Positions 1 through 23,273 of a stretch of DNA of 64,000 nucleotides are shown piece by piece. Position 1 is the first letter of the stretch; every line of letters begins with the position of its first letter. This DNA is from Brachyhypopomus gauderio (Eukaryota; Chordata; Actinopteri; Gymnotiformes; Hypopomidae). The translations under genes and the position numbers were made by a program. A model generated the notes under the pieces. That model had not been told where the DNA came from and made no database searches. It saw nothing but the letters and a program-made list of their open reading frames with translations. The stretch spans positions 12,232,503-12,296,502 of the forward strand of contig NC_135225.1 of assembly GCF_052324685.1 (NCBI RefSeq), written 5' to 3'.

Positions 1-42
1 TATAAGTGAAAAAAATCTTTCAATGATATCTTGGCTCTGTAG

Positions 43-1279
43 AACTTATTCAGCCGTGGTCAACACCAAACTCGAATTCAGCTCGTCCTCTCCCATCCCG
101 AGTGCGAGTGTGGTCCTCAAGGCTACAGACGATCTGCTGAATTCTCGACTTGCAAACATCACTACTTCTTTGAAAGTGCTCAACTACACCTGTCAGCGTG
201 GGTATCCTTTTTCAATTTGCTCAATATTACTAAAATCACTCTTTTCACTGTGCGAGCTGAATGGAATCTATATTCGTATCATTCACCCTGAATGACTTTT
301 TTTTCCACAGCAATTACAAATACCTCCTTTGCTGTCTTCATCATATTCAGTCTCAACAATGTCAGCATGCCAGACAGCACTAACCTCACCAACAATCCAT
401 ATGACATTTTGCAGAATCTTATCAACGACGCAGTGAGTATAGAATATTGTTCAAATAAGAATATTGCTGCAGTTACATTTATCAAGATTTTCTGTTGTCT
501 TTATAAATTTCCACATGTGATTAGCGGATGCAATACAAATATTACAAATTTTATATATTTTTTGATTATAATGTATTTTTACTGCCAAAGAAAACACTTT
601 AGAAGTATTAAATTGATAAAAAAAACATTTACAATTGTTCCAGTATTGATAACAATCTCAATTTCAAGTCGAGTGAACAGTTTTAAAACTCCAAATGTTT
701 ACAACTACCTATTATCGGAAGAATAACTCAGTGAGTCATTTTTATTTATCTCCAGCTAAATACACTTCTGAATGAACCTACTGCAACACCAATTAAACCC
801 CAGAACTCTTCCTTTGTGTAAGTTTCACTCACTGTACATTTTGAAAATAGCCTCTTTCTACTATTACCATACAGTCAATCTATATCTTTTTCCCCCATCT
901 TCTTTTATTAGAACTTTGGAAAATGAGATTAAAGGTAACATGGAGTACAGCTTCCAAGATGGAGATACCATTGTACCTGTCAGCTTCCTGAAAGAGCTCA
1001 AGAGTCAGAGTGGTAAGTTATATGACAGTAACTTTTATCTCCACTCGTCTTCCAAGAAATCATTTATTTTTATGTACTACCTGTCAGTAAATGTTCTTTG
1101 TTTGTAGTTTCACCTACACCAGTTCCTACAACGTCCACAAGCAGTCTGGTGGTGACTTCTGTAACAGCCCCCTCACTAATGTATGCGTATATTCTTATTT
1201 TTATTTTAATTTGCAACAGAATTGTTTGTTGTGAATTATAAGTGAAAAAAAATCTTTCAATGATATCTTGGCTCTGTAG
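43..1279 (+). repeat. Cassette 1 of the glycoprotein array (5 exons)
   Basis: Exons A 43-197, B 311-432, C 756-817, D 912-1012 and E 1108-1180. Their phases run 2-1, 1-0, 0-2, 2-1 and 1-2, and together they add 513 nt. Exon A starts after ctctgtag and ends at a gtgggt donor. Exon E ends in AT and joins the next exon A to encode ITYSAVVNTKLEF. Length 1,237 bp. Almost identical to cassette 5, introns included. Confidence 0.85.
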
Positions 1280-4200
1280 AACTTATTCAGCCGTGGTCAA
1301 CACCAAACTCGAATTCAGCTCGTCCTCTCCCATCCCGAGTGCGAGTGTGGTCCTCAAGGCTACAGACGATCTGCTGAATTCTCGACTTGCAAACATCACT
1401 ACTTCTTTGAAAGTGCTCAACTACACCTGTCAGCGTGGGTATCCTTTTTCATTTTGCTCAAGATTAATAAAATCACTCTTTTCACTGTGCGAGCTGAATG
1501 GAATCTACATTCGTATCATTCACCCTGAATGACTTTTTTTTCAACAGCAATTACAAATACCTCCTTTGCTGTCTTCATCATATTCAGTCTCAACAATGTC
1601 AGCATGCCAGACAGCACTAACCTCACCAACAATCCATATGACATTTTGCAGAATCTTATCAACGACGCAGTGAGTGTAGAATATTGTTCAAATAAGAATA
1701 TTGCTGCAGTTACATTTATCAAGATTTTCTGTTGTCTTTATAAATTTCCACATGTGATTAGCTGATGCAATACAAATATTACAAATTTTATATATTTTTT
1801 GATTATAATGTATTTTTACTGCCAAAAAAAACACTTTACAAGTATTAAATTGATTTAAAAAAAAACATTTACAATTGTTCCAGTATTGATAACAATCTCA
1901 ATTTCAAGTCGAGTGAACAGTTTTAAAACTCCAAATGTTTACAACTACCTATTATCGGAAGAATAACTCAATGAGCCATTTTTATTTATCTCCAGCTAAA
2001 TACACTTCTGAATGAACCTACTGCAACACCAATTAAACCCCAGAACTCTTCCTTTGTGTAAGTTTCACTCACTGTACATTTTGAAAATAGCCTCTTTCTA
2101 CTATTACCATACAGTCAATCTATATCTTTTTCCCCCATCTTCTTTTATTAGAAATTTGGGAAATGAGATTAAAGGTAACATGGAGTACAGCTTCCAAGAT
2201 GGAGATACCATTGTACCTGTCAGCTTCCTGAAAGAGCTCAAGAGTCAGAGTGGTAAGTTACATGACAGTAACTTTTATCTCCACTCGTCCTCCAAGAAAT
2301 CATTTATTTTTATGTACTACCGGTCAGTAAATGTTCTTTGTTTGTAGTTTCACCTACACCAGTTCCTACAACATCCACAAGCAGTCTGGTGGTGACTTCT
2401 GTAACAGCCCCCTCACTAATGTATGCGTATATTCTTATTCTTATTTTTATTTGCAGCAGAATTGTTTGTTGTGAATTATAAGTGAAAAAAATGTTTCAAT
2501 GATATCTTGGCTCTGTAGAACTTATTCAGCCGTGGTCAACACCAAACTCGAATTCAGCTCGTCCTCTCCCATCCCGAGTGCGAGTGTGGTCCTCAAGGCT
2601 ACAGACGATCTGCTGAATTCTCGACTTGCAAACATCACTACTTCTTTGAAAGTGCTCAACTACACCTGTCAGCGTGGGTATCCTTTTTCATTTTGCTCAA
2701 GATTAATAAAATCACTCTTTTCACTGTGCGAGCTGAATGGAATCTATATTCGTATCATTCACCCTGAATGACTTTTTTTTCAACAGCAATTACAAATACC
2801 TCCTTTGCTGTCTTCATCATATTCAGTCTCAACAATGTCAGCATGCCAGACAGCACTAACCTCACCAACAATCCATATGACATTTTGCAGAATCTTATCA
2901 ACGACGCAGTGAGTGTAGAATATTGTTCAAATAAGAATATTGCTGCAGTTACATTTATCAAGATTTTCTGTTGTCTTTATAAATTTCCACATGTGATTAG
3001 CTGATGCAATACAAATATTACAAATTTTATATATTTTTTGATTATAATGTATTTTTACTGCCAAAAAAAACACTTTACAAGTATTAAATTGATTTAAAAA
3101 AAACATTTACAATTGTTCCAGTATTGATAACAATCTCAATTTCAAGTCGAGTGAACAGTTTTAAAACTCCAAATGTTTACAACTACCTATTATCGGAAGA
3201 ATAACTCAATGAGCCATTTTTATTTATCTCCAGCTAAATACACTTCTGAATGAACCTACTGCAACACCAATTAAACCCCAGAACTCTTCCTTTGTGTAAG
3301 TTTCACTCACTGTACATTTTGAAAATAGCCTCTTTCTACTATTACCATACAGTCAATCTATATCTTTTTCCCCCATCTTCTTTTATTAGAAATTTGGGAA
3401 ATGAGATTAAAGGTAACATGGAGTACAGCTTCCAAGATGGAGATACCATTGTACCTGTCAGCTTCCTGAAAGAGCTCAAGAGTCAGAGTGGTAAGTTACA
3501 TGACAGTAACTTTTATCTCCACTCGTCCTCCAAGAAATCATTTATTTTTATGTACTACTTGTCAGTAAATGTTCTTTGTTTGTAGTTTCACCTACACCAG
3601 TTCCTACAACATCCACAAGCAGTCTGGTGGTGACTTCTGTAACAGCCCCCTCACTAATGTATGGGTATATTCTTATTTTTATTTTAATTTGCAACAGAAT
3701 AGTTTGTTATGAATTATAAGTGAAAAAAATCTTTCAATGATATCTTGGCTCTGTAGAACTTATTCAGCCGTGGTCAACACCAAACTCGAATTCAGCTCGT
3801 CCTCTCCCATCCCGAGTGCGAGTGTGGTCCTCAAGGCTACAGACGATCTGCTGAATTCTCGACTTGCAAACATCACTACTTCTTTGAAAGTGCTCAACTA
3901 CACCTGTCAGCGTGGGTATCCTTTTTCAATTTGCTCAATATTAATAAAATCACTCTTTTCACTGTGCGAGCTGAATGGAATCTACATTCGTATCATTCAC
4001 CCTGAATGACTTTTTTTTCCACAGCAATTACAAATACCTCCTTTGCTGTCTTCATCATATTCAGTCTCAACAATGTCAGCATGCCAGACAGCACTAACCT
4101 CACCAACAATCCATATGACATTTTGCAGAATCTTATCAACGACGCAGTGAGTATAGAATATTGTTCAAATAAGAATATTGCTGCAGTTACATTTATCAAG

Positions 4201-7200
4201 ATTTTCTGTTGTCTTTATAAATTTCCACATGTGATTAGCGGATGCAATACAAATATTACAAATTTTATATATTTTTTGATTATAATGTATTTTTACTGCC
4301 AAAAAAAACACTTTACAAGTATTAAATTGATAAAAAAAACGTTTACAATTGTTCCAGTATTGATAACAATCTCAATTTCAAGTCGAGTGAACAGTTTTAA
4401 AACTCCAAATGTTTACAACTACCTATTATCGGAAGAATAACTCAGTGAGCCATTTTTATTTATCTCCAGCTAAATACACTTCTGAATGAACCTACTGCAA
4501 CACCAATTAAACCCCAGAACTCTTCCTTCGTGTAAGTTTCACTCACTGTACATTTTGAAAATAGCCTCTTTCTACTATTACCATACAGTCAATCTATATC
4601 GTTTTCCCCCATCTTCTTTTATTAGAACTTTGGAAAATGAGATTAAAGGTAACATGGAGTACAGCTTCCAAGATGGAGATACCATTGTACCTGTCAGCTT
4701 CCTGAAAGAGCTCAAGAGTCAGAGTGGTAAGTTACATGGCAGTAACTTTTATCTCCACTCGTCCTCCAAGAAATTATTTATTTTTATGTACTACTTGTCA
4801 GTAAATGTTCTTTGTTTGTAGTTTCACCTACACCAGTTCCTACAACGTCCACAAGCAGTCTGGTGGTGACTTCTGTAACAGCCCCCTCACTAATGTATGC
4901 GTATATTCTTATTTTTATTTTAATTTGCAACAGAATTGTTTGTTGTGAATTATAAGTGAAAAAAATCTTTCAACGATATCTTGGCTCTGTAGAACTTATT
5001 CAGCCGTGGTCAACACCAAACTCGAATTCAGCTCGTCCTCTCCCATCCCGAGTGCGAGTGTGGTCCTCAAGGCTACAGACGATCTGCTGAATTCTCGACT
5101 TACAAACATCACTACTTCTTTGAAAGTGCTCAACTACACCTGTCAGCGTGGGTATCCTTTTTCAATTTGCTCAATATTACTAAAATCACTCTTTTCACTG
5201 TGCGAGCTGAATGGAATCTATATTCGTATCATTCACCCTGAATGACTTTTTTTTCCACAGCAATTACAAATACCTCCTTTGCTGTCTTCATCATATTCAG
5301 TCTCAACAATGTCAGCATGCCAGACAGCACTAACCTCACCAACAATCCATATGACATTTTGCAGAATCTTATCAACGACGCAGTGAGTATAGAATATTGT
5401 TCAAATAAGAATATTGCTGCAGTTACATTTATCAAGATTTTCTGTTGTCTTTATAAATTTCCACATGTGATTAGCGGATGCAATACAAATATTACAAATT
5501 TTATATATTTTTTGATTATAATGTATTTTTACTGCCAAAGAAAACACTTTAGAAGTATTAAATTGATAAAAAAAACATTTACAATTGTTCCAGTATTGAT
5601 AACAATCTCAATTTCAAGTCGAGTGAACAGTTTTAAAACTCCAAATGTTTACAACTACCTATTATCGGAAGAATAACTCAGTGAGTCATTTTTATTTATC
5701 TCCAGCTAAATACACTTCTGAATGAACCTACTGCAACACCAATTAAACCCCAGAACTCTTCCTTTGTGTAAGTTTCACTCACTGTACATTTTGAAAATAG
5801 CCTCTTTCTACTATTACCATACAGTCAATCTATATCTTTTTCCCCCATCTTCTTTTATTAGAACTTTGGAAAATGAGATTAAAGGTAACATGGAGTACAG
5901 CTTCCAAGATGGAGATACCATTGTACCTGTCAGCTTCCTGAAAGAGCTCAAGAGTCAGAGTGGTAAGTTATATGACAGTAACTTTTATCTCCACTCGTCT
6001 TCCAAGAAATCATTTATTTTTATGTACTACCTGTCAGTAAATGTTCTTTGTTTGTAGTTTCACCTACACCAGTTCCTACAACGTCCACAAGCAGTCTGGT
6101 GGTGACTTCTGTAACAGCCCCCTCACTAATGTATGCGTATATTCTTATTTTTATTTTAATTTGCAACAGAATTGTTTGTTGTGAATTATAAGTGAAAAAA
6201 AATCTTTCAATGATATCTTGGCTCTGTAGAACTTATTCAGCCGTGGTCAACACCAAACTCGAATTCAGCTCGTCCTCTCCCATCCCGAGTGCGAGTGTGG
6301 TCCTCAAGGCTACAGACGATCTGCTGAATTCTCGACTTGCAAACATCACTACTTCTTTGAAAGTGCTCAACTACACCTGTCAGCGTGGGTATCCTTTTTC
6401 ATTTTGCTCAAGATTAATAAAATCACTCTTTTCACTGTGCGAGCTGAATGGAATCTACATTCGTATCATTCACCCTGAATGACTTTTTTTTCAACAGCAA
6501 TTACAAATACCTCCTTTGCTGTCTTCATCATATTCAGTCTCAACAATGTCAGCATGCCAGACAGCACTAACCTCACCAACAATCCATATGACATTTTGCA
6601 GAATCTTATCAACGACGCAGTGAGTGTAGAATATTGTTCAAATAAGAATATTGCTGCAGTTACATTTATCAAGATTTTCTGTTGTCTTTATAAATTTCCA
6701 CATGTGATTAGCTGATGCAATACAAATATTACAAATTTTATATATTTTTTGATTATAATGTATTTTTACTGCCAAAAAAAACACTTTACAAGTATTAAAT
6801 TGATTAAAAAAAAAACATTTACAATTGTTCCAGTATTGATAACAATCTCAATTTCAAGTCGAGTGAACAGTTTTAAAACTCCAAATGTTTACAACTACCT
6901 ATTATCGGAAGAATAACTCAATGAGCCATTTTTATTTATCTCCAGCTAAATACACTTCTGAATGAACCTACTGCAACACCAATTAAACCCCAGAACTCTT
7001 CCTTTGTGTAAGTTTCACTCACTGTACATTTTGAAAATAGCCTCTTTCTACTATTACCATACAGTCAATCTATATCTTTTTCCCCCATCTTCTTTTATTA
7101 GAAATTTGGGAAATGAGATTAAAGGTAACATGGAGTACAGCTTCCAAGATGGAGATACCATTGTACCTGTCAGCTTCCTGAAAGAGCTCAAGAGTCAGAG

Positions 7201-10200
7201 TGGTAAGTTACATGACAGTAACTTTTATCTCCACTCGTCCTCCAAGAAATCATTTATTTTTATGTACTACTTGTCAGTAAATGTTCTTTGTTTGTAGTTT
7301 CACCTACACCAGTTCCTACAACATCCACAAGCAGTCTGGTGGTGACTTCTGTAACAGCCCCCTCACTAATGTATGCGTATATTCTTATTTTTATTTTAAT
7401 TTGCAACAGAATAGTTTGTTATGAATTATAAGTGAAAAAAATCTTTCAATGATATCTTGGCTCTGTAGAACTTATTCAGCCGTGGTCAACACCAAACTCG
7501 AATTCAGCTCGTCCTCTCCCATCCCGAGTGCGAGTGTGGTCCTCAAGGCTACAGACGATCTGCTGAATTCTCGACTTGCAAACATCACTACTTCTTTGAA
7601 AGTGCTCAACTACACCTGTCAGCGTGGGTATCCTTTTTCAATTTGCTCAATATTAATAAAATCACTCTTTTCACTGTGCGAGCTGAATGGAATCTACATT
7701 CGTATCATTCACCCTGAATGACTTTTTTTTCCACAGCAATTACAAATACCTCCTTTGCTGTCTTCATCATATTCAGTCTCAACAATGTCAGCATGCCAGA
7801 CAGCACTAACCTCACCAACAATCCATATGACATTTTGCAGAATCTTATCAATGACGCAGTGAGTATAGAATATTGTTCAAATAAGAATATTGCTGCAGTT
7901 ACATTTATCAAGATTTTCTGTTGTCTTTATAAATTTCCACATGTGATTAGCGGATGCAATACAAATATTACAAATTTTATATATTTTTTGATTATAATAT
8001 ATTTTTACTGCCAAAAAAAACACTTTACAAGTATTAAATTGATTTAAAAAAAACATTTACAATTGTTCCAGTATTGATAACAATCTCAATTTCAAGTCGA
8101 GTGAACAGTTTTAAAACTCCAAATGTTTACATTTACAACTACCTATTATCGGAAGAATAACTCAATGAGCCATTTTTATTTATCTCCAGCTAAATACACT
8201 TCTGAATGAACCTACTGCAACACCAATTAAACCCCAGAACTCTTCCTTCGTGTAAGTTTCACTCACTGTACATTTTGAAAATAGCCTCTTTCTACTATTA
8301 CCATACAGTCAATCTATATCTTTTTCCCCCATGTTCTTTTATTAGAACTTTGGAAAATGAGATTAAAGGTAACATGGAGTACAGCTTCCAAGATGGAGAT
8401 ACCATTGTACCTGTCAGCTTCCTGAAAGAGCTCAAGAGTCAGAGTGGTAAGTTATATGACAGTAACTTTTATCTCCACTCGTCTTCCAAGAAATCATTTA
8501 TTTTTATGTACTACCTGTCAGTAAATGTTCTTTGTTTGTAGTTTCACCTACACCAGTTCCTACAACGTCCACAAGCAGTCTGGTGGTGACTTCTGTAACA
8601 GCCCCCTCACTAATGTATGCGTATATTCTTATTTTTATTTTAATTTGCAACAGAATTGTTTGTTGTGAATTATAAGTGAAAAAAAATCTTTCAATGATAT
8701 CTTGGCTCTGTAGAACTTATTCAGCCGTGGTCAACACCAAACTCGAATTCAGCTCGTCCTCTCCCATCCCGAGTGCGAGTGTGGTCCTCAAGGCTACAGA
8801 CGATCTGCTGAATTCTCGACTTACAAACATCACTACTTCTTTGAAAGTGCTCAACTACACCTGTCAGCGTGGGTATCCTTTTTCAATTTGCTCAAGATTA
8901 ATAAAATCACTCTTTTCACTGTGCGAGCTGAATGGAATCTACATTCGTCTCATTCACCCTGAATGACTTTTTTTTCCACAGCAATTACAAATACCTCCTT
9001 TGCTGTCTTCATCATATTCAGTCTCAACAATGTCAGCATGCCAGACAGCACTAACCTCACCAACAATCCATATGACATTTTGCAGAATCTTATCAACGAC
9101 GCAGTGAGTATAGAATATTGTTCAAATAAGAATATTGCTGCAGTTACATTTATCAAGATTTTCTGTTGTCTTTATAAATTTCCACATGTGATTAGCGGAT
9201 GCAATACAAATATTACAAATTTTATATATTTTTTGATTATAATGTATTTTTACTGCCAAAAAAAACACTTTACAAGTATTAAATTGATAAAAAAAACATT
9301 TACAATTGTTCCAGTATTGATAACAATCTCAATTTCAAGTCGAGTGAACAGTTTTAAAACTCCAAATGTTTACAACTACCTATTATCGGAAGAATAACTC
9401 AGTGAGCCATTTTTATTTATCTCCAGCTAAATACACTTCTGAATGAACCTACTGCAACACCAATTAAACCCCAGAACTCTTCCTTCGTGTAAGTTTCACT
9501 CACTGTACATTTTGAAAATAGCCTCTTTCTACTATTACCATACAGTCAATCTATATCTTTTTCCCCCCATCTTCTTTTATTAGAACTTTGGAAAATGAGA
9601 TTAAAGGTAACATGGAGTACAGCTTCCAAGATGGAGATACCATTGTACCTGTCAGCTTCCTGAAAGAGCTCAAGAGTCAGAGTGGTAAGTTACATGGCAG
9701 TAACTTTTATATCCACTCGTCCTCCAAGAAATCATTTATTTTTATGTACTACTTGTCAGTAAATGTTGTTTGTTTGTAGTTTCACCTACACCAGTTCCTA
9801 CAACGTCCACAAGCAGTCTGGTGGTGACTTCTGTAACAGCCCCCTCACTAATGTATGCGTATATTCTTATTTTTATTTTAATTTGCAACAGAATTGTTTG
9901 TTGTGAATTATAAGTGAAAAAAATCTTTCAATGATATCTTGGCTCTGTAGAACTTATTCAGCCGTGGTCAACACCAAACTCGAATTCAGCTCGTCCTCTC
10001 CCATCCCGAGTGCGAGTGTGGTCCTCAAGGCTACAGACGATCTGCTGAATTCTCGACTTACAAACATCACTACTTCTTTGAAAGTGCTCAACTACACCTG
10101 TCAGCGTGGGTATCCTTTTTCAATTTGCTCAAGATTAATAAAATCACTCTTTTCACTGTGCGAGCTGAATGGAATCTACATTCGTCTCATTCACCCTGAA

Positions 10201-13200
10201 TGACTTTTTTTTCCACAGCAATTACAAATACCTCCTTTGCTGTCTTCATCATATTCAGTCTCAACAATGTCAGCATGCCAGACAGCACTAACCTCACCAA
10301 CAATCCATATGACATTTTGCAGAATCTTATCAACGACGCAGTGAGTATAGAATATTGTTCAAATAAGAATATTGCTGCAGTTACATTCATCAAGATTTTC
10401 TGTTGTCTTTATAAATTTCCACATGTGATTAGCGGATGCAATACAAATATTACAAATTTTATATATTTTTTGATTATAATGTATTTTTACTGCCAAAAAA
10501 AACACTTTACAAGTATTAAATTGATAAAAAAAACATTTACAATTGTTCCAGTATTGATAACAATCTCAATTTCAAGTCGAGTGAACAGTTTTAAAACTCC
10601 AAATGTTTACAACTACCTATTATCGGAAGAATAACTCAGTGAGCCATTTTTATTTATCTCCAGCTAAATACACTTCTGAATGAACCTACTGCAACACCAA
10701 TTAAACCCCAGAACTCTTCCTTCGTGTAAGTTTCACTCACTGTACATTTTGAAAATAGCCTCTTTCTACTATTACCATACAGTCAATCTATATCTTTTTC
10801 CCCCCATCTTCTTTTATTAGAACTTTGGAAAATGAGATTAAAGGTAACATGGAGTACAGCTTCCAAGATGGAGATACCATTGTACCTGTCAGCTTCCTGA
10901 AAGAGCTCAAGAGTCAGAGTGGTAAGTTACATGGCAGTAACTTTTATATCCACTCGTCCTCCAAGAAATCATTTATTTTTATGTACTACTTGTCAGTAAA
11001 TGTTGTTTGTTTGTAGTTTCACCTACACCAGTTCCTACAACGTCCACAAGCAGTCTGGTGGTGACTTCTGTAACAGCCCCCTCACTAATGTATGCGTATA
11101 TTCTTATTTTTATTTTAATTTGCAACAGAATTGTTTGTTGTGAATTATAAGTGAAAAAAATCTTTCAATGATATCTTGGCTCTGTAGAACTTATTCAGCC
11201 GTGGTCAACACCAAACTCGAATTCAGCTCGTCCTCTCCCATCCCGAGTGCGAGTGTGGTCCTCAAGGCTACAGACGATCTGCTGAATTCTCGACTTACAA
11301 ACATCACTACTTCTTTGAAAGTGCTCAACTACACCTGTCAGCGTGGGTATCCTTTTTCAATTTGCTCAAGATTAATAAAATCACTCTTTTCACTGTGCGA
11401 GCTGAATGGAATCTACATTCGTCTCATTCACCCTGAATGACTTTTTTTTCCACAGCAATTACAAATACCTCCTTTGCTGTCTTCATCATATTCAGTCTCA
11501 ACAATGTCAGCATGCCAGACAGCACTAACCTCACCAACAATCCATATGACATTTTGCAGAATCTTATCAACGACGCAGTGAGTATAGAATATTGTTCAAA
11601 TAAGAATATTGCTGCAGTTACATTCATCAAGATTTTCTGTTGTCTTTATAAATTTCCACATGTGATTAGCGGATGCAATACAAATATTACAAATTTTATA
11701 TATTTTTTGATTATAATGTATTTTTACTGCCAAAAAAAACACTTTACAAGTATTAAATTGATAAAAAAAACATTTACAATTGTTCCAGTATTGATAACAA
11801 TCTCAATTTCAAGTCGAGTGAACAGTTTTAAAACTCCAAATGTTTACAACTACCTATTATCGGAAGAATAACTCAGTGAGCCATTTTTATTTATCTCCAG
11901 CTAAATACACTTCTGAATGAACCTACTGCAACACCAATTAAACCCCAGAACTCTTCCTTCGTGTAAGTTTCACTCACTGTACATTTTGAAAATAGCCTCT
12001 TTCTACTATTACCATACAGTCAATCTATATCTTTTTCCCCCATCTTCTTTTATTAGAACTTTGGAAAATGAGATTAAAGGTAACATGGAGTACAGCTTCC
12101 AAGATGGAGATACCATTGTACCTGTCAGCTTCCTGAAAGAGCTCAAGAGTCAGAGTGGTAAGTTACATGGCAGTAACTTTTATCTCCACTCGTCCTCCAA
12201 GAAATCATTTATTTTTATGTACTACTTGTCAGTTAATGTTCTTTGTTTGTAGTTTCACCTACACCAGTTCCTACAACGTCCACAAGCAGTCTGGTGGTGA
12301 CTTCTGTAACAGCCCCCTCACTAATGTATGCGTATATTCTTATTTTTATTTTAATTTGCAACAGAATTGTTTGTTGTGAATTATAAGTGAAAAAAAATCT
12401 TTCAATGATATCTTGGCTCTGTAGAACTTATTCAGCCGTGGTCAACACCAAACTCGAATTCAGCTCGTCCTCTCCCATCCCGAGTGCGAGTGTGGTCCTC
12501 AAGGCTACAGACGATCTGCTGAATTCTCGACTTACAAACATCACTACTTCTTTGAAAGTGCTCAACTACACCTGTCAGCGTTGGTATCCTTTTTCAATTT
12601 GCTCAATATTAATAAAATCACTCTTTTCACTGTGCGAGCTGAATGAAATCTACATTCGTCTCATTCACCCTGAATGACTTTTTTTTCCACAGCAATTACA
12701 AATACCTCCTTTGCTGTCTTCATCATATTCAGTCTCAACAATGTCAGCATGCCAGACAGCACTAACCTCACCAACAATCCATATGACATTTTGCAGAATC
12801 TTATCAATGACGCAGTGAGTATAGAATATTGTTCAAATAAGAATATTGCTGCAGTTACATTTATCAAGATTTTCTGTTGTCTTTATAAATTTCCACATGT
12901 GATTAGCGGATGCAATACAAATATTACAAATTTTATATATTTTTTGATTATAATATATTTTTACTGCCAAAAAAAAACACTTTACAAGTATTAAATTGAT
13001 TAAAAAAAACATTTACAATTGTTCCAGTATTGATACCAATCTCAATTTCAAGTCGAGTGAACAGTTTTAAAACTCCAAATGTTTACAACTACCTATTATC
13101 GGAAGAATAACTCAATGAGCCATTTTTATTTATCTCCAGCTAAATACACTTCTGAATGAACCTACTGCAACACCAATTAAACCCCAGAACTCTTCCTTCG

Positions 13201-16200
13201 TGTAAGTTTCACTCACTGTACATTTTGAAAATAGCCTCTTTCTACTATTACCATACAGTCAATCTATATCTTTTTCCCCCATCTTCTTTTATTAGAACTT
13301 TGGAAAATGAGATTAAAGGTAACATGGAGTACAGCTTCCAAGATGGAGATACCATTGTACCTGTCAGCTTCCTGAAAGAGCTCAAGAGTCAGAGTGGTAA
13401 GTTATATGACAGTAACTTTTATCTCCACTCGTCTTCCAAGAAATCATTTATTTTTATGTACTACCTGTCAGTAAATGTTCTTTGTTTGTAGTTTCACCTA
13501 CACCAGTTCCTACAACATCCACAAGCAGTCTGTTGGTGACTTCTGTAACAGCCCCCTCACTAATGTATGCGTATATTCCTATTTTTATTTTTATTTGCAA
13601 CAGAAGTGTTTGTTGTGAATTTTAAGTGAAAAAAAAATCTTTCAATGATATCTCGGTTCTGTAGAAGTTATTCAGATGTGGTGAATACCAAACAGAAATG
13701 TTCATTCTGAATTGTCAGTGAAAATAACTTTCTGTGATATTTATGCAACATACATGTTCATTTCATGTAATTTCTGTGTAATAAATGAAGTATTGTCATT
13801 GAATTGTTTTCCCATGTTTGTTCCTCCAGGTCTGTCTTACCAGGCACTCCTTCCCCACCTACCTCAATTCCTCAGAACACTGCATTTTCGTAAGTATATT
13901 ATTCCTAAACTGGATCTCCCTTTTTTCATTTTTATTTACTACATATATGAAATTAGTCTGAGATTATTTTCATTGATATGAATGTTCATTCTGAATTATC
14001 AGTGAAAATAACTTTCTGTGATATTTATGCAACATATATGTTCATTTCATGTAATTTCTGTGTAATAAATGAAGAATTGTCATTGAAATGTTTTCCCATG
14101 TTTGTTCCTCCAGGTCTGTCTTACCAGGCACTCCTTCCCCACCTACCTCAATTCCTCAGAACACTGCAATTTCGTAAGTATATTATTCCTAAACTGGATC
14201 TCCCTTTTTTCATTTTTATTTACTACATATATGAAATTAGTCTGAGATTATTTTCATTATAATATGTTATTTCATTTTATGTTTGGCATCACTTTTTTAT
14301 GTATAGAATATTGAATACTAATTAATCTTGCTTTCGTCCTTCAGAAATATCAAAGTGGAGATTTATATTTCCGTGGCATTTATGAATGTACCGACTGTTC
14401 CTACTTATGATCAGATAAAAGCCGCCTATGCTAAGTTAGACTCAAGTGTCAGAGCAAAACAGGAAATCGCACCCCTAATGCTAAATGACCCTGTGATTAT
14501 CCAGAACCTTACCTACGAAAGTGAGTCTCTTTCCTGTTCTACTGTGTTGTATATAAACAAAACTGTCAGTGATCCTGAATAAGTTATGTGTAGGTTCTTT
14601 GTAGACATCCATTATTTACCAATGAATGACCTCAAATAACTAATACAATTTCAGAAGTCTGGACATCTCAGCATTTGTTTATCATGTGTTGTATTAATCT
14701 TCCTCCTCCCTTTTAGACACCAGCACCTCATTCAACATCACCTTTGATTTTGGAATCCACATGATCATGTCTAAGAGCCCTGAAGTGAGAAATGAAACAT
14801 ATACTTTCATTAATTCAACCTGCTATGACTTGGTGAGTGTCAGCCACATCTAATAATTATTATGCATCTTGGAATTTGCTTTTCATCAAAATAAAAATAT
14901 TGTTTATTGTATAAAATCATGTAATTAAATCTTACTTATTTTCAGCTGAACAAAATAATGAATGCCCGTAGTATACAGCCTACCTTTCCACAGCCCCGAT
15001 ACTTGTAAGTTATGCTCTATATGAATGGAATACTTCAATAACTCTATAAGAAGCTTAAAGAGATAAAAGCTTAACTGGATACTACATTCATGTGGCAGAG
15101 ATTGTCCAAAATTAATCTAGCAGATTAACACTTATCAAGAGCAGGCAATTCTTCTTTCTCTGAATATACAATCTATATAGCAGCATCAGTGTTACTACAA
15201 TACATGTGTAAACGGCACAAGATTTTAAAATGGCAACCACCGAGTGTAATGTTAAATGTTATTAAATGTTCTTAAAAAAGAAAAGATTACAAAAATACAT
15301 AAAGGAGTGAGATAATTATGGCAAGTGGCTGAAATGCGTAAGAGATAAAGGAGCCAAGGCCAAGTGCACCGTACAGCATCCATAATTTTCTATTAGGCTA
15401 GTTACGGTGGAATTTGTGACATCAAACAGCACACATTGGGAGAAATCATAGCGAGACACTACAAAGGAGACAGGGAGAGGGAGCACACTAAAAAGTTCCT
15501 TATGCATCTAACCCAGATCTGGTTGATAGGTACCAGGGATGCTTCTTTGAAAGCTACCAATTACCTCACACAGAGAAAAGCTGAACTACAGCAAAAATTA
15601 CTCAAATTACTCAAACTAGTTTTTACTACTTTGTGGAAGAAACTATCATGTTGAGTGTGTACATGCGATTTGAAATGACAATATAAGAATATTGTAACTT
15701 TCTGCGTGGCGCAGAACAGGGAGGCGGACACAAACGCTGAGAAGAGCGAGATTTATTCATGGGAATATCATACTCATCGTCACTTAACCAGTCCGGGTTC
15801 AACACGGGAGGGCAGTCCGAAAAACAAGCAAAGACGGGCATGACAAAACAGAAACATGTAACGAGCAAAGACTAAAACCGGGAAACAGACAACGGGCAAT
15901 AGAACAATAAAACATCCAACATCCAAAACAACCGACGAGGGACAAGGGACACTCAGGGACTATATATACAGAACTTTAAACAGGGAACAGGTGAGGGCAA
16001 TGACACGGGGGTGTGGTAACAAACAAGGAATCAAACGAGCAGGGCGGGATAAACAGGCGAGGAACACAGACACAAGGGAACCCGGAGTGACAGCTAGGAG
16101 AGGGGGCGTTGCCATACGTTACAAATATTATAAATAGAATATAAAGCAAAAACATGCCTGCAAAAGATGCCACAGTTGAGCTTATTCCAAACAGTGCCCA

Positions 16201-17381
16201 CTTTAATACATAAACTAAACAAACACATAAAATAAATAAAATGCAGGGCACACAAACAGGACACAGGCGTTTCATGCAGTTGACAAGCGCATACACATAC
16301 TCTGCTCTTGTCGATAAAACCTCACTCTGAACTGAATTCAAAACTTGAGAGCCCTGAAAGTAGTATTTATGGAAATGTAAGACAAATTTTCAAAACTTAT
16401 ATCCCATATTGCACGCACACACACACACACACATACAAATAGATAGATACACAGATTTTTTTTCATTTAAATTAAAATTATAATGCAGCATATTATGGTT
16501 CATACTGTATAATATAAATAGCAACATTTGCGTGTCACATAATACAGCATTTGTATATACTGTATATATGTGGTTTATTATACTTTATTATCATAAAGTG
16601 TTAAAACTATATATTTTAAATAGCCTAAATAAAACATTTTGATAATGTTCCTATGATGGTGTTCCATATGACCCATCATATTTCCTAAAGGTGAAACCCT
16701 ACCATTTGCTTTTTTTAATCAGGTCTTGTAGCTGTGTTAAACCGTTAACTTTAGTTTTGTTTATTTTTCCATTGCTTCCAGGCAAATTAATTCGACGATT
16801 TTGGCTACTTTGAATTACGTCTTTAACCGGGAAGATTTCAGCTCACCAAGTCCATTTCTTGATCTAATACTTAAAGAAAGTGGTCTAGCATTTATCATCC
16901 CACCTCCTACAACTACACCTGCCGAGTTCCCATTAGTCCTCAACACCACAAACCATGGAAACAGCACTGGGGGAGCCTGGTGGGCCCTGGGCATCATTAT
17001 CCCCTGTAGTATAGTCATCTTTCTTGTACCATGTTGGATTATACTCTGTGTAAGTATAATAAATAGCTTTTAAAGTCATTATCATGTAATCTATATGCAA
17101 GATAGATAATATATGGCATTAATTAAGATCTTACAAATCTTTTTTCCACAAATTTACATATGGATTAATACAAATTAAATAAACATTATTAAACAGTAAT
17201 ATTGAGAACCCACAGAATTGCTATGCTATATCATCTCACTGTTCTATCCTGTCTTTCTCCGTGTGTTTTTCACTGCATGTCTCAGTGTATACTGTGTGGT
17301 TGGTGTGCTGCTATAAGGAGGCGCTACAAAAGAAGACGTTCCTACAGTGTCCAGTACTCAACACGAAATGGACTCTTTTGA
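43..17381 (+). CDS. Giant repetitive type I membrane glycoprotein, 3' part (5' end outside window)
   Basis: Exons of eleven tandem cassettes, two linker exons and five 3' exons splice in one open frame with GT/AG sites. They encode about 2,160 residues and stop at TGA 17379-17381. Each 171-residue repeat has six N-X-S/T sequons, one cysteine and a Ser/Thr/Pro-rich end (VSPTPVPTTSTSSL). The C-terminal exons give a diverged repeat, a Pro/Thr linker (PPPTTTPAEFP), a hydrophobic helix of about 24 residues (ALGIIIPCSIVIFLVP onward), a Cys-rich juxtamembrane segment and a basic tail ending STRNGLF. This layout is that of a mucin-like, heavily glycosylated plasma-membrane protein with a large ectodomain. 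The strand-helix-strand pattern (for example FAVFIIFSLNNVSM then YDILQNLINDALNTLL) resembles SEA-type modules, which is my inference. I do not recognise the gene. No signal peptide or start is present, because transcription begins upstream of base 1. Confidence 0.75.
1280..2518 (+). repeat. Cassette 2 of the glycoprotein array
   Basis: Exons A 1280-1434, B 1548-1669, C 1996-2057, D 2152-2252, E 2348-2420. Exon D has the variant NLGNEIK in place of TLENEIK, shared with cassettes 3 and 6. The intron after E has a unique attcttattctta stretch. Length 1,239 bp. Confidence 0.85.
2519..3756 (+). repeat. Cassette 3 of the glycoprotein array
   Basis: Exons A 2519-2673, B 2787-2908, C 3234-3295, D 3390-3490, E 3586-3658. 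Carries the NLGNEIK variant. Its last intron has the signature aatagtttgttatg, which is also found at the end of cassette 6. Confidence 0.85.
3757..4992 (+). repeat. Cassette 4 of the glycoprotein array
   Basis: Exons A 3757-3911, B 4025-4146, C 4470-4531, D 4626-4726, E 4822-4894. Exon D is of the TLENEIK type. All splice sites are retained. The first half matches cassette 7. Confidence 0.85.
4993..6229 (+). repeat. Cassette 5 of the glycoprotein array
   Basis: Exons A 4993-5147, B 5261-5382, C 5706-5767, D 5862-5962, E 6058-6130. Same length as cassette 1 (1,237 bp). By eye it differs from it mainly at the Ala/Thr site in exon A (RLTNITTS versus RLANITTS). Confidence 0.85.
6230..7468 (+). 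repeat. Cassette 6 of the glycoprotein array (chimera of 2 and 3)
   Basis: Exons A 6230-6384, B 6498-6619, C 6946-7007, D 7102-7202, E 7298-7370. The 5' half carries cassette 2 markers (same 1,239-bp length, and eight A's in the leader before exon A). The 3' end carries cassette 3 markers (ctacttgtcag and aatagtttgttatg). Confidence 0.85.
7469..8713 (+). repeat. Cassette 7 of the glycoprotein array
   Basis: Exons A 7469-7623, B 7737-7858, C 8190-8251, D 8346-8446, E 8542-8614. Longest cassette (1,245 bp), because of a 6-bp duplication (tttacatttac) in the intron before exon C. The exon B end has AAT for AAC, shared with cassette 11 and synonymous. Confidence 0.85.
8714..9950 (+). repeat. Cassette 8 of the glycoprotein array
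   Basis: Exons A 8714-8868, B 8982-9103, C 9427-9488, D 9584-9684, E 9780-9852. The intron before exon D has one extra C in its C-run. Its 3' half matches that of cassette 9. Confidence 0.85.
9951..11187 (+). repeat. Cassette 9 of the glycoprotein array
   Basis: Exons A 9951-10105, B 10219-10340, C 10664-10725, D 10821-10921, E 11017-11089. The 3' half matches cassette 8 (extra C, gttgtttgtttgtag). The 5' half matches cassette 10 (acattcatc after exon B). Confidence 0.85.
11188..12424 (+). repeat. Cassette 10 of the glycoprotein array
   Basis: Exons A 11188-11342, B 11456-11577, C 11901-11962, D 12057-12157, E 12253-12325. Carries Thr in exon A (RLTNITTS). All splice sites are intact. Confidence 0.85.
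12425..13664 (+). repeat. Cassette 11, last full cassette of the array
   Basis: Exons A 12425-12579, B 12693-12814, C 13140-13201, D 13296-13396, E 13492-13564. It is the most diverged cassette. The exon A donor is gttggt instead of gtgggt, and exon E has Leu for Val (TTG for GTG). Edge position probably shields it from homogenisation. Confidence 0.83.
13665..13696 (+). pseudogene. Decayed start of a twelfth exon A
   Basis: After the usual leader and a gttctgtag acceptor, about 31 nt resemble the start of exon A (SYSDVVNTKQ versus TYSAVVNTKL). The similarity then ends where the 284-bp linker repeat begins. Read on, the frame hits a stop within a few codons, so this exon is presumably skipped. 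It marks the 3' boundary of the array. Confidence 0.6.
13697..14264 (+). repeat. Two 284-bp tandem copies, each with a 60-nt Pro/Thr/Ser linker exon
   Basis: Copies 13697-13980 and 13981-14264 are nearly identical. Each holds one exon (13830-13889 and 14114-14173) after a ttcctccag acceptor and before a gtaagt donor. Each exon encodes 20 residues (VLPGTPSPPTSIPQNTA core) and is phase 2 to 2, so it can be added or lost without breaking the frame. They look like an extensible mucin-like stalk between the repeats and the membrane-proximal module. Confidence 0.75.
15693..16123 (-). mobile_element. Solo LTR in the intron, 5-bp target duplication
   Basis: The element runs from TGTAAC to GTTACA and is flanked by AATAT on both sides (15688-15692 and 16124-16128). 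A minus-strand AATAAA (gatttattc on the + strand) sets its orientation. Its ends resemble those of the LTRs at 17989 and 20809 (TGTAAC...GTAACA), suggesting the same broad family. No internal retroviral or gag/pol sequence remains. Confidence 0.75.
16412..16433. repeat. (CA)n microsatellite
   Basis: An uninterrupted run of about ten CA dinucleotides in the intron. Confidence 0.85.
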
Positions 17382-18168: not shown

Positions 18169-20628
18169 TCAGGGCGTGCAACACCGGGGCACGCCAAACA
18201 GGGAGGGAGGAACGGACACCGGGGACAGGGACAAAATGACGTACACTGGGACCAGCGGGCGAGACCGGGACAGGGACGACAGGCCCGGGGCAGGACGGAC
18301 GCAACGGGCCACCGACCGGACGTAAGGGAGGACAGGGACAAGGGACGGGAGGCAACACGGGAACGGGACCAGACGGGACAGGGCAGGGAGCCGACACGGG
18401 TGGTGGGACCAAGGGCACAGGATTGGAAACAAGGGAAGACCGGGCTTCAGAAGACAACAGGCGGACGACAACGGAGATCGGGACGGGGACGAAGTGGGAA
18501 CCGAGACGGGTACAGGGACCTGGAGGAAACCACAAGAAACAGACACAGGGACGGACACGTGGACGCGAACAGACACACACACAGGGACCAACAGGAAACC
18601 AGGCACGGGACAGGGCAACAAAGGGAACACAGATAAGGGCAAAACAGGATCAACAGAAGGGCCGGCACATAAACAGGATGGCACAGACTCAGTCCCAGGC
18701 CCACAGGCGGGCAAAGCAGTCACTGTGGGGACCTGCGCAGTCAGACAAGCGTTCCTGGGAGCCTGTGGGCTAGGAGTCAGGCTGGGGCCTGCGGGGACCA
18801 GCAGGACAGGCTGACGGGGCACGGGGACTTGCAGAGACTGCCCGCGGGCAACGGGAACAGGCGGGGTCCGCCCGCGGGCAGCGGGAACAGGCAGGGTCCG
18901 CCCGCGGGCAGCGGGAACAGGCGGGGTCCGCCCGCGGGCAGCGGGAACAGGCGGGGTCCGCCCGCGGGCAGCGAGAACAGGAGGCAGAGGCGCCCAGTCG
19001 GCCCTGGAAAACTCGGGGGCCGAGGCGTCAGAGGAGACGTCGTCGGGGGCCGAGGCGTCAGAGGAGACGTCGTCGGGGGCCGAGGCGGCAGAGGAGACGT
19101 CGTCGGGGGCCGAGGCCGCCGGGCGGACGTCGTCGGGGGCCGAGGCAGCCGGGCGGACGTCGTCGGGGGCCGAGGCAGCCGGGCGGACGTCGTCGGGGGC
19201 CGAGGCAGCCGGGCGGACGTCGTCGGGGGCCGAGGCAGCCGGGCGGACGTCGTCGGGGGCCGAGGCAGCCGGGGGGACGTCGTCGGGGGCCGAGGCAGCC
19301 GGGCGGACGTCGTCGGGGGCCGAGGCAGCCGGGCGGACGTCGTCGGGAGCCGAGGCAGCCGGGCAGGCCACATCAGGAGCCGGGGACGCGGCCAACGGGC
19401 AGGAGTCGTCCGGGGACGCGGCCAACGGGCCGACCTCAACAGGGGCCGGAGCCGCCAGATGGACGTCATGGGGGGGCGGAGCCTCCGGGTCGACGTCATC
19501 GGGGGGCCGAGCCTCCGGGTCGACGTCATCGGGGGGCCGAGCCTCCGGGTCGACGTCGTCTGGAGCAGGCGGGTACGCCGGGCAGGCGTCGTCTGGAGCA
19601 GGCGGGTACACCGGGCAGGCGACGTCGTCAGCAGGCAGGAACGCCGGGCAGACGACGTCGTCAGCAGGCAGAAACGCCGGGCAGACGACGTCGTCAGCAG
19701 GCAGAAACGCCGGGCAGACGACGTCGTCAGCAGGCAGAAACGCCGGGCAGACGACGTCGTCAGCAGGCAGGAACGCCGGGCAGACGACGTCGTCAGCAGG
19801 CAGGAACGCCGGGCAGGCGACGTCGGGGGCCGGGGACGCCGGGCAGGCGACGTCGGGGGCCGGGGACGCCGGGCAGGCTACGTCGGGGGCCGGGGACGCC
19901 GGGCAGGCGACGTCGGGGGCCGGGGACGCCGGGCAGGCGACGTCGGGGGCCGGGGACGCCGGGCAGGCGACGTCGGGGGCCGGGGACGCCGGGCAGGCGA
20001 CGTCGGGGGCCGGGGACGCCGGGCAGGCGTCGTCTGGGGCCGGGGACGCGGCCAACGGGCAGGAGTCGTCCGGGGACGAGGCCAACGGGCCGACCTCAAC
20101 AGGGGCCGGGCAGACGTCATCAGCGTAATTGGGCCCCATGGCCGCCGGAACGTTGTCATCAGAGGGCGTGGCCACCGGAACGACATCATCAGAGGGCGTG
20201 GCCACCGGAACGACATCATCAGAGGGCGTGGCCACCGGAACGACGTCATCAGGGGGCGTGGCCACCGGAACGACGTCAGCAGGGGGCGTGGCCAACGGAA
20301 CGACGTCAGTAGGGGGCGTGGCCAACGGAACGATGTCAGCAGGGGGCGTGGAGACCTGGGTGATGCAGGCGGGTATGGAGACTTGAGGAACACCAGCACT
20401 AACCCCTGGGTTCACCCTCCTCCACACACTGCGCTGAAACGAGGGCCGGATGGCAGTACCAGCAAACCTAGTCCGCATTAGGTCACTGAAGCCCTTCACT
20501 GTCCATGCGTCACCCAAGCGTCTCGACAAGATTATGTCTGCCCACTCCAGTGCTTTGGACTTTAGTTGAGAGCGCATAAAAAGCACTAACACTAAAAATA
20601 AAATAATCAGCGGACATAGTTTCCCCAT
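18169..20628 (-). CDS. Repeat-rich open frame of the LTR element (819 codons, gag-like start)
   Basis: The frame opens MGKLCPLIILFLVLVLF. About 20 residues in, it reads SQLKSKALEWADIILSRRLG and then GFSDLMRTRF, a pattern like the end of Ty3/gypsy-type Gag domains (helical, with an ALEWA motif). From about residue 95 it becomes tandem peptides: DVVPVATPP, APDVACPASP, ADDVVCPAFLP, PDDVRPAASA, then Pro/Arg repeats (PVPAARGRTP). The tail is Val/Ser/Pro-rich and looks like translated non-coding GC-rich DNA. Because the DNA repeats are multiples of three, the opposite strand is open too, so ORF length is weak evidence for a protein. I read it as a gag remnant with an expanded minisatellite. Expression is unproven. 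Confidence 0.4.
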   Translation of the reverse strand: MGKLCPLIILFLVLVLFMRSQLKSKALEWADIILSRRLGDAWTVKGFSDLMRTRFAGTAIRPSFQRSVWRRVNPGVSAGVPQVSIPACITQVSTPPADIVPLATPPTDVVPLATPPADVVPVATPPDDVVPVATPSDDVVPVATPSDDVVPVATPSDDNVPAAMGPNYADDVCPAPVEVGPLASSPDDSCPLAASPAPDDACPASPAPDVACPASPAPDVACPASPAPDVACPASPAPDVACPASPAPDVACPASPAPDVACPASPAPDVACPAFLPADDVVCPAFLPADDVVCPAFLPADDVVCPAFLPADDVVCPAFLPADDVVCPAFLPADDVACPVYPPAPDDACPAYPPAPDDVDPEARPPDDVDPEARPPDDVDPEAPPPHDVHLAAPAPVEVGPLAASPDDSCPLAASPAPDVACPAASAPDDVRPAASAPDDVRPAASAPDDVPPAASAPDDVRPAASAPDDVRPAASAPDDVRPAASAPDDVRPAASAPDDVRPAASAPDDVSSAASAPDDVSSDASAPDDVSSDASAPEFSRADWAPLPPVLAARGRTPPVPAARGRTPPVPAARGRTLPVPAARGRTPPVPVARGQSLQVPVPRQPVLLVPAGPSLTPSPQAPRNACLTAQVPTVTALPACGPGTESVPSCLCAGPSVDPVLPLSVFPLLPCPVPGFLLVPVCVSVRVHVSVPVSVSCGFLQVPVPVSVPTSSPSRSPLSSACCLLKPGLPLFPILCPWSHHPCRLPALSRLVPFPCCLPSLVPVLPYVRSVARCVRPAPGLSSLSRSRPLVPVYVILSLSPVSVPPSLFGVPRCCTP
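18829..20345. repeat. Compound GC-rich minisatellite (30- and 33-bp units)
   Basis: Successive blocks are visible. About 5 units of a 30-mer with cccgcgggcagcgggaacag lie near 18835-18980. About 12 units with gtcgtcgggggccgaggcag lie at 19018-19380. Then come 3 units at 19486-19560, 33-mers (gacgtcgtcagcaggcag) at 19620-19815, 30-mers (gacgtcgggggccggggac) at 19816-20040, and 30-mers with gggcgtggccaccgga at 20155-20345. All periods are multiples of three. Confidence 0.85.
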
Positions 20629-20806
20629 GGTCTATATCCGGGCACGGAGCTAGAGAAGGCAAAGCAACGCATTTGCCAAAAGCGTCCTTGGTCAGGACTG
20701 ATTGTATATTATCCAGGCTAGCCCGAAAAGAATCCTCATCACGGGAAATTTCCTCTCTTTCAGGAGAACAAGTAACCTGCTGCATCACTTTAAATTGGTC
20801 GGTCAT
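20510..20806 (-). CDS. Gag-like N-terminal frame of the LTR element (98 codons)
   Basis: It starts MTDQFKVMQQVTCSPEREE a few bases inside the LTR boundary and overlaps the 819-codon frame in another phase. The acidic, charged N-terminus followed by SLDNIQSVLTKDAFGKC is plausible as a capsid leader. The ALEWAD segment lies in the other frame, so the original gag probably had one frame and has been shifted. The three copies (here, 22975-23271 and 25385-25681) keep the same break, so it predates the duplications. Confidence 0.35.
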   Translation of the reverse strand: MTDQFKVMQQVTCSPEREEISRDEDSFRASLDNIQSVLTKDAFGKCVALPSLAPCPDIDHGETMSADYFIFSVSAFYALSTKVQSTGVGRHNLVETLG

Positions 20807-20808
20807 TA

Positions 20809-21493
20809 GGTAACGAATCAAGGGGTTAGGCGTGACGCAAACGCAAGTTCTTAGGTAATTTATTAAACAAAGCAAGAGACAGACTACACTGACGAGAACT
20901 ACAAAGCACAGGAGAATGTACGCAACAGACGACAGAACCACTAAGAGACAGAACTAATCATGATAAACTACGAAGACACACACATACCATACGACAGAAC
21001 TAGAAACCACGGAGTACCAAACAAACAATTAGCTACAAACGCTCATGGTACAAATACAAAACAACTGTAAAGTCAAACAGACAGCATCTATCAATAAACG
21101 GTGAACATGACAAGAAAGACAAAGCTAAAGGACTAACTAAACACAGAAGCAAACACTGGCAGGTGAAACAAAACCACAGAAGGGAACTACCAAACACAGG
21201 GAGACTGAACAGGAGGCCAGAAACAGACACAGAGCACAACTAGAACATTAGCAGAAAGGAGAACCAAGTCAGGAAAAGGGGGAAACATGGAACTAGACCA
21301 CAGAGTACTCACGAAACACAATGACCGACACGGAGGACTGAAATAGATGGGATGATATACTCTGAACAGGGGAGTGAAACGAGATTCAGGTGTGGGCACT
21401 CAAGACGGGGGGGGGGGGGGGCAGACATGAGGGAAAGCACAGAAACAGGGAAACTAGGCGGGACCAGGGAGGAGGGCGGAACTGGACGTAACA
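20809..21493 (-). repeat. Upstream LTR of the element (first copy)
   Basis: 685 bp ending in ggacgtaaca, and near-identical to 23274-23969 and 25684-26373. It contains a poly-G run at about 21406-21421. The left terminus reads GGTAAC, where the other copies have TGTAAC, a point change. Confidence 0.7.
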
Positions 21494-21830
21494 ACTCCCT
21501 TGATCTGAGGACCTACAGATCACAATCACAGGAAGAACATCCCAGAATAAAGTTTGAGAAAATAACCGACTCTGGTCCCTTAATGTTTCTGCAGCATGAA
21601 GTGAAAAATGCCAAGAAAGGTTTTCTACCCAGCACCCTTCTGCTGGGGAGATCCAAAATTCACAACCCCCAGAAGGACAGTTCCTCATAAAATTTGAGGA
21701 ACAAATCTTATCTTGACTCTCCAGATTCACCACATACCGCCTTCTTTCTCTCTGAAATTCATTGATAACCAAGGAGATAAATTTTAGAGATTTTTACAAC
21801 TATGTTCCAAGACAGACACTGGATTATAAT
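21494..21830. other. Host DNA between the LTR element and the hAT end (first copy)
   Basis: About 340 bp beginning with the ACTCC target duplicate and ending in the ATTATAAT hAT target site. It recurs at 23970-24306 and 26374-26710. No gene is recognisable in it. Confidence 0.6.
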
Positions 21831-23093: not shown

Positions 23094-23273
23094 GGTCTAT
23101 ATCCGGGCACGGAGCTAGAGAAGGCAAAGCAACGCATTTGCCAAAAGCGTCCTTGGTCAGGACTGATTGTATATTATCCAGGCTAGCCCGAAAAGAATCC
23201 TCATCACGGGAAATTTCCTCTCTTTCAGGAGAACAAGTAACCTGCTGCATCACTTTAAATTGGTCGGTCATTA

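What the first reader, a model, noticed from the sequence alone, without database searches (positions are those of the whole stretch)
43..13664. Tandem array of eleven near-identical five-exon cassettes in one glycoprotein gene
A 1.24-kb block including five introns is repeated with almost no change. Exons and introns are equally conserved, so sequence homogenisation, not protein selection alone, keeps them alike. Each block adds exactly 171 residues, and the phases close, so any number of cassettes gives a working protein. This is a natural length-variable ectodomain.
Basis: seen in the sequence. Interest (0 to 1): 0.85.

Follow-up and report, generated by a model that had tools for sequence, protein, structure and literature searches.

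The report
Giant MUC16-like fish mucin cassette array
An electric fish has a giant membrane mucin gene in which a five-exon block, introns included, is copied about 20 times almost unchanged, so the protein could grow or shrink block by block, in a layout much like the human CA125 mucin.

Summary
The repeat is real. Eleven complete five-exon cassettes fill 43-13664; the window cuts the array and nine more lie upstream: 20 in the assembly, each 513 coding nt/171 aa, no stops, GT...AG at all 100 introns. Species: Brachyhypopomus gauderio (inferred). Upstream is one giant Ser/Thr/Pro exon, open for 11,434 codons; downstream are a diverged membrane-proximal copy, a transmembrane segment and a tail shared with gar. 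This is a giant membrane mucin (about 15,000 aa predicted) laid out like MUC16/CA125, whose repeats are also five-exon units. "Exons and introns equally conserved" is wrong: 13/513 exon sites vary against 49/726 intron sites. Cassettes are about 98.8% alike in DNA, yet unit 1 is at most 64% identical in protein to units of 27 other proteins compared, and another array of the same genome is homogenised separately. Variants are mosaic. Local unequal crossing-over/gene conversion plus purifying selection explains this. SEA homology is suggestive only: one profile's best PDB hit is a MUC16 SEA domain (E=0.037), but Pfam, two other profiles and fold searches do not confirm it. Copy-number polymorphism, splicing and MUC16 orthology were not tested. 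New variant of a known kind.

The parts
1..42 (+). 3' end of intron 5 of cassette c9, which lies upstream of the window; shows that the window cuts the array. c1-c9 occupy window -11109 to 42; the giant PTS exon (open frame window -45492 to -11191) lies 5' of them
1280..2518 (+). cassette c11: exons 1280-1434, 1548-1669, 1996-2057, 2152-2252, 2348-2420
2519..3756 (+). cassette c12: exons 2519-2673, 2787-2908, 3234-3295, 3390-3490, 3586-3658 (donor GTATGG)
3757..4992 (+). cassette c13: exons 3757-3911, 4025-4146, 4470-4531, 4626-4726, 4822-4894
4993..6229 (+). cassette c14: exons 4993-5147, 5261-5382, 5706-5767, 5862-5962, 6058-6130
6230..7468 (+). cassette c15: exons 6230-6384, 6498-6619, 6946-7007, 7102-7202, 7298-7370
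7469..8713 (+). cassette c16: exons 7469-7623, 7737-7858, 8190-8251, 8346-8446, 8542-8614
8714..9950 (+). cassette c17: exons 8714-8868, 8982-9103, 9427-9488, 9584-9684, 9780-9852
9951..11187 (+). cassette c18: exons 9951-10105, 10219-10340, 10664-10725, 10821-10921, 11017-11089
11188..12424 (+). cassette c19: exons 11188-11342, 11456-11577, 11901-11962, 12057-12157, 12253-12325
12425..13664 (+). cassette c20, last and most diverged: exons 12425-12579 (donor GTTGGT), 12693-12814, 13140-13201, 13296-13396, 13492-13564
13665..13693 (+). decayed, truncated copy of a 21st first exon; read in the cassette's frame it meets a stop at 13708-13710, so it should be skipped
   Evidence: match ends at 13693; stop read by eye
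13830..13889 (+). 60-nt linker exon (phase 2-2)
14114..14173 (+). second copy of the 60-nt linker exon, within a 284-bp tandem duplication (13697-14258)
14345..14520 (+). membrane-proximal diverged cassette, exon equivalent to E1 (phase 2-1)
14717..14832 (+). membrane-proximal cassette, exon equivalent to E2 (phase 1-0)
14946..15004 (+). membrane-proximal cassette, exon equivalent to E3 (phase 0-2)
16782..17049 (+). exon: end of the membrane-proximal domain, Pro/Thr-rich stalk and transmembrane segment
   Evidence: a helix covers the matching segment in the model of paralogue P0001
17286..17381 (+). last coding exon: basic cytoplasmic tail ending RRRSYSVQYSTRNGLF and stop; the tail is shared with gar protein P0085
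17746..17751 (+). AATAAA, candidate polyadenylation signal
   Evidence: read by eye

Best explanation
A giant membrane-tethered mucin gene of Brachyhypopomus gauderio. One very large exon encodes about 11,400 residues of Ser/Thr/Pro-rich, presumably O-glycosylated chain. Then come 20 near-identical five-exon cassettes, each a ~140-residue alpha/beta domain with N-glycosylation sequons plus a short Pro/Thr-rich linker; then a diverged membrane-proximal domain, one transmembrane helix and a short basic tail. Because each cassette starts and ends in intron phase 2, any whole number keeps the frame. Misaligned recombination between copies (unequal crossing-over and gene conversion) adds, removes and homogenises whole cassettes, introns included, separately at each locus, while purifying selection keeps the exons cleaner than the introns. 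The product should be an extended cell-surface barrier molecule that works like MUC16. Shown: sequence, frames, homology, array-specific homogenisation, mosaicism. Inferred: transcription, splicing, glycosylation, barrier role, population copy-number change.
For: 20 cassettes without stops; 100 of 100 donors GT and 100 of 100 acceptors AG, counting for c20 the acceptor of the decayed exon. PTS exon: 0 stops in 11,434 codons against 354 and 248 in the other two forward frames, 68.1% S/T/P, built mainly of 444-bp repeats. The C-terminal tail is present in 15 of 19 proteins of alignment A1 (by eye; two are truncated, two end differently) and in gar P0085. Mean within-array protein identity 0.990 over 10 of the 11 window units, against at most 0.64 for unit 1 to any unit of 27 other proteins; clustering of units by protein 22 changes vs 77.1 in shuffles, minimum 10; an array on contig C45 homogenised on its own. 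Four-gamete failures 173 of 595 site pairs, Rm 8; nearer copies more alike, Mantel p=0.0005; c20 the most diverged. Exon 13/513 vs intron 49/726 variable sites.
Against: No transcript, protein or population data. Copy number rests on one assembly. The first exon with a signal peptide was not found. c1 ranks third in divergence (17.3; c20 22.6, c11 17.6), so an edge effect is clear only at the 3' end. In the tree four of 11 groups need three or four changes, and within-array identity is as low as 0.30 in short models that mix unit types. SEA homology unproven.
Confidence: 0.86

Rival explanations
1. Assembly artefact: a few real cassettes were multiplied, or alleles were laid end to end.
For: Four pairs (c3/c4, c6/c7, c10/c14, c17/c18) differ at one aligned base (matrix); the longest exact repeat inside the array is 1722 bp.
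Against: No two of the 20 copies are identical and c20 has 9 private substitutions; variants are mosaic. Relatives hold comparable arrays, and another array with different sequence exists in the same genome. None of this proves the exact count.
Confidence: 0.07
2. Recent one-off burst of duplication without continuing exchange: copies are alike only because they are young.
For: Divergence is low, about 1.2%; neighbouring copies are more alike (rho 0.32, Mantel p=0.0005).
Against: Incompatible sites (173 of 595 pairs, Rm at least 8) point to exchange among copies, unless recurrent mutation made them. Arrays of the same unit occur in many ostariophysan proteins, and in most groups of the tree units cluster by protein, as expected for long-running turnover.
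Confidence: 0.1
3. Purifying selection on protein alone keeps the copies alike.
For: Exons are less variable than introns (13/513 vs 49/726).
Against: Introns are still about 98.4% alike (mean pairwise difference 0.016), although against a C45 unit of the same genome no blastn piece covers intron 1 or most of intron 2, and the piece spanning exons 3-5 with introns 3-4 is 67% identical.
Confidence: 0.02

Closest known systems
MUC16 / CA125
   Same: PTS-rich region, tandem SEA-domain repeats, more diverged membrane-proximal copies, one TM, short tail. Each human repeat (156 aa) is coded by five exons (PMC3431878, passages); the human array has 19 repeats (PMC10829539, passages); membrane-proximal SEA domains are more divergent (PMC10875768, passages); chicken Muc16 has a PTS domain and at least four SEA domains (PMC1552070, passages). 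Best PDB hit of a 28-unit profile is 1ivz, named as the Mucin 16 SEA domain in PMC3886910 (passages).
   Different: 171 aa per unit and 1.24 kb (human 156 aa, ~1.9 kb). No cysteine pair: human repeats have two conserved Cys; the window unit has one Cys, not conserved in relatives. Human MUC16 has the most degenerate repeat and almost no length variation (PMC13345508, passages); these cassettes are nearly uniform. Pfam SEA is not reached by the window unit.
LPA kringle IV type 2 array
   Same: A multi-exon cassette (5.5 kb, two exons) repeated inside one gene, copy number 12-63 in people (PMC10584998, passages).
   Different: Unrelated domain, two exons per cassette; population variation is measured there and unknown here.
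Uncharacterised fish proteins named mucin-5AC-like, serine-rich adhesin for platelets, LOC143476132 and the like
   Same: Direct homologues: unit, and in most complete models TM and tail.
   Different: 1 to 15 full-length units in the deposited models; I saw only the N-terminal 110 residues of 19 of them and cannot say how complete their PTS regions are; names are automatic.

Membership tests
Mucin (PTS-domain protein) | long domain rich in Pro, Thr, Ser | tested here: met
   11,434-codon open frame; 68.1% S+T+P over its last 11,386 residues. O-glycosylation itself not testable
MUC16-type membrane mucin | tandem extracellular domains each encoded by five exons | tested here: met
   20 of 20 cassettes, 171 aa; human comparison from PMC3431878 passages. 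Exons are predicted, no transcript
MUC16-type membrane mucin | repeat domain is a SEA domain | tested here: inconclusive
   28-unit profile: top PDB hit 1ivz E=0.037; A1 and A4 profiles do not list MUC16 and reach TMPRSS11D (a SEA protein, recalled) only at E 1.5 and 4.6; no SEA entry that I recognise in the 50 rows shown by Foldseek or VIA-align
MUC16-type membrane mucin | two conserved cysteines (C-loop) per repeat | tested here: not met
   one Cys per window unit, not conserved in relatives; feature from PMC10829539 passages
MUC16-type membrane mucin | single transmembrane segment and short cytoplasmic tail at the C terminus | tested here: met
   exons 16782-17049 and 17286-17381 read by eye; 42-residue helix at the matching place in the model of P0001; no TM predictor was run
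MUC16-type membrane mucin | orthology by synteny or domain phylogeny | not tested
   no tetrapod sequence was compared beyond the PDB profile search
SEA domain PF01390 | Pfam match for a single domain | tested here: not met
   window unit: no family at E<=10, and SEA is not among the 25 of 26 families shown for 28 units. P0032 reaches 35.2 bits only as a whole-protein sum, no stretch passing E 0.1 alone; 2 of 19 members of A1, best E 0.056. SEA searched in this genome: three matches, on C2, C23 and C30, none at an array locus
Multi-exon coding VNTR (LPA KIV-2 kind) | copy number differs between individuals | not testable with these tools
   only one assembly of the species is held

The most novel reading that the evidence does not exclude
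Ray-finned fishes back to gar carry an unrecognised, rapidly turning-over family of MUC16-type tethered mucins whose SEA-like domains escape Pfam. In this gymnotiform fish it has expanded to several separately homogenised arrays, and one gene reaches about 15,000 residues with a ~34-kb coding exon and a population-variable number of five-exon cassettes. The five-exon repeat of human CA125 would then be an ancient heritable recombination unit and not a mammalian peculiarity.
Probability: 0.35. Interest if true: 0.75.

Novelty: new variant of a known kind. Interest (0 to 1): 0.55.

Why it matters
It looks like a natural system in which a protein's reach from the cell surface is set by counting nearly identical multi-exon blocks, with introns as a built-in yardstick for separating homogenisation from selection. 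It may also offer a distant comparison for MUC16/CA125, whose repeat number was revised from 63 to 19 only with long reads (PMC10829539, passages), and it shows that automatic annotation can hide giant mucins under meaningless names.

Full report
What is there. The window begins inside a tandem array. BLAST and anchor searches find eleven complete copies starting at 43, 1280, 2519, 3757, 4993, 6230, 7469, 8714, 9951, 11188 and 12425; the last ends at 13664. Each holds five exons of 155, 122, 62, 101 and 73 nt, together 513 nt or 171 aa, with intron phases that close at phase 2. Forty kb fetched upstream from the same contig show nine more complete copies, so the array has 20 in this assembly. 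None of the 20 has a stop, they encode six distinct proteins, and all 100 donors are GT and all 100 acceptors AG; for the last intron of c20 the acceptor counted is that of a decayed exon.

Species. The window is at 12,232,503-12,296,502 of a 23,554,584-base contig in a 796.5-Mb genome. P0074, a Brachyhypopomus gauderio protein (LOC143476132), is listed with a contig of exactly that length, and ten stretches of it (only those at 90% or more were printed) map at 91-100% identity to DNA 194 kb upstream of the window. P0001, also B. gauderio, is listed with a contig of 2,069,636 bases, the length of C45. The identification is an inference from these matches; B. gauderio is a gymnotiform fish.

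The whole gene. Directly 5' of cassette c1 is an open frame of 11,434 codons (window -45492 to -11191) with no stop, while the other two forward frames hold 354 and 248. It is 68.1% Ser, Thr and Pro and built largely of 444-bp repeats, three runs of 10.2, 7.0 and 49.9 copies. By eye it ends in a phase-2 donor, like exon 5, so the junction is the same with any number of cassettes (sequence). The signal-peptide exon was not found. Downstream of c20 lie a decayed first-exon copy with a stop (13708-13710), a 60-nt exon doubled within a 284-bp tandem repeat, and a diverged membrane-proximal cassette whose first three exons (176, 116, 59 nt) keep the cassette's phases; then a TM exon and a tail exon. 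The predicted product is about 15,000 residues (sum of these numbers).

Homogenisation and selection. Over 20 copies the mean difference is 15.04 substitutions, range 1-29, and no pair is identical. Variable sites are 13 of 513 in exons and 49 of 726 in introns (Fisher p=8e-4); for the 11 window copies 7 of 513 and 44 of 728 (p=1.8e-5). In 35 informative sites, 173 of 595 pairs fail the four-gamete test, with at least eight exchange intervals per unit; divergence rises with distance in the array (rho 0.32, Mantel p=0.0005 from 2000 permutations); c20 is the most diverged (22.6), then c11 (17.6) and c1 (17.3).

Between genes and species. Searches returned 19, 35 and 41 proteins, together 85 different ones; being homology hits, all 85 carry at least one unit. 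The searches are limited by length and by the number of candidates scored, so absence elsewhere is not shown. A first unit scan covered the first 54 plus the window; 27 of the 54 plus the window were compared (units under 118 residues dropped), and 11 of these 28 entered the tree of 105 units. In that tree nine membrane-proximal domains (Metynnis two, Colossoma, Neoarius, Hemibagrus, Silurus, Electrophorus, P0001, window) form one starred group; those of the three cypriniform proteins fall outside it. Array units cluster by protein (22 label changes, minimum 10, against 77.1 in shuffles). Not all agree: Carassius needs four changes and Pimephales, Metynnis and Misgurnus three. Mean within-array identity runs from 0.30 (Paramisgurnus and Leuciscus, three units each of mixed type) through 0.54-0.66 (Pangasius, Sinocyclocheilus anshuiensis, Prochilodus, Acnodon) to 1.00 (Silurus); it is 0.990 in the window (10 of 11 units). 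The label Brachyhypopomus in the tree is a paralogue in the window's own species, so window against P0001 compares two genes of one genome. On contig C45 eleven first exons are seen; of the ten units compared, nine differ at 0-9 columns and the tenth at 19-25, and blastn aligns one of them to a window cassette in three pieces at 67, 74 and 76% identity. Homogenisation therefore acts within a locus.

What the domain is. AlphaFold2 on P0001 with 18 relatives gives the complete units a beta-alpha-beta-beta-alpha-beta-beta-alpha order (mean pLDDT 73.4, pTM 0.31). A profile of 28 units has as its best PDB hit 1ivz_A at E=0.037; a paper passage names 1ivz as the Mucin 16 SEA domain (PMC3886910). Against this, two multi-domain profiles do not list MUC16, Pfam SEA fails for the window unit, the SEA model finds three places in this genome, none in these arrays, and the fold-search rows shown hold no SEA entry that I recognise. 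I regard SEA descent as somewhat more likely than not, but not shown.

Comparison. The layout works like MUC16: mucin exon, five-exon repeats (PMC3431878 passages), 19 repeats in people (PMC10829539 passages), diverged membrane-proximal units (PMC10875768 passages). It fails one defining feature, the cysteine pair, and orthology is untested, so I do not file it as MUC16. Human MUC16 repeats are degenerate and nearly fixed in length, and about half of human mucins show more degenerate array ends (PMC13345508 passages); the fish array is the opposite extreme in uniformity. LPA kringle IV type 2 is a known multi-exon cassette array with measured copy-number variation (PMC10584998 passages).

Verdict. 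A real, correctly located feature, under-counted only because the window's edge cuts it, with one false statement about exons and introns. It belongs to a known kind (tethered mucins with tandem multi-exon domains) but is an extreme variant that I did not find described in the searches listed.

Noticed in passing
window -45492 to -11191 (in L009-L012 and L020): A single open frame of 11,434 codons, 68% Ser/Thr/Pro, made largely of 444-bp repeats: an exceptionally long coding exon just outside the window.
   Followed up: yes
13665-14258: Truncated 21st first exon running into a stop, next to a 284-bp tandem duplication that doubles a 60-nt linker exon (98% matches).
   Followed up: partly
C45:288001-308000 (L017, L018), C45:137001-147000 (L016), C195:154001-164000 (L019), C15:12037003-12047002 (L015), C15:12145003-12165002 (L013, L014): Further loci of the same family in the genome, with 11, 5, 4, 1 and 2 first-exon matches; the C45 array of ~1200-bp units is homogenised independently of the window's array.
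   Followed up: partly
18169-25506: GC-rich minisatellite arrays (30-33 bp units) inside an open frame of 820 aa on the minus strand, with two shorter frames at 22194-23096 and 24670-25506 that start with the same protein sequence and lie 2476 bp apart; no Pfam family for the 820-aa frame.
   Followed up: partly
36843-37751 (minus): C2H2 zinc-finger coding stretch with four zf-C2H2 matches.
   Followed up: no
52712-53395 (minus): Tc1/Sleeping Beauty-type transposase fragment (PF01498, PF25787).
   Followed up: no
P0085: Spotted gar homologue with two units and a very similar TM and basic tail, so the family appears to predate teleosts.
   Followed up: partly
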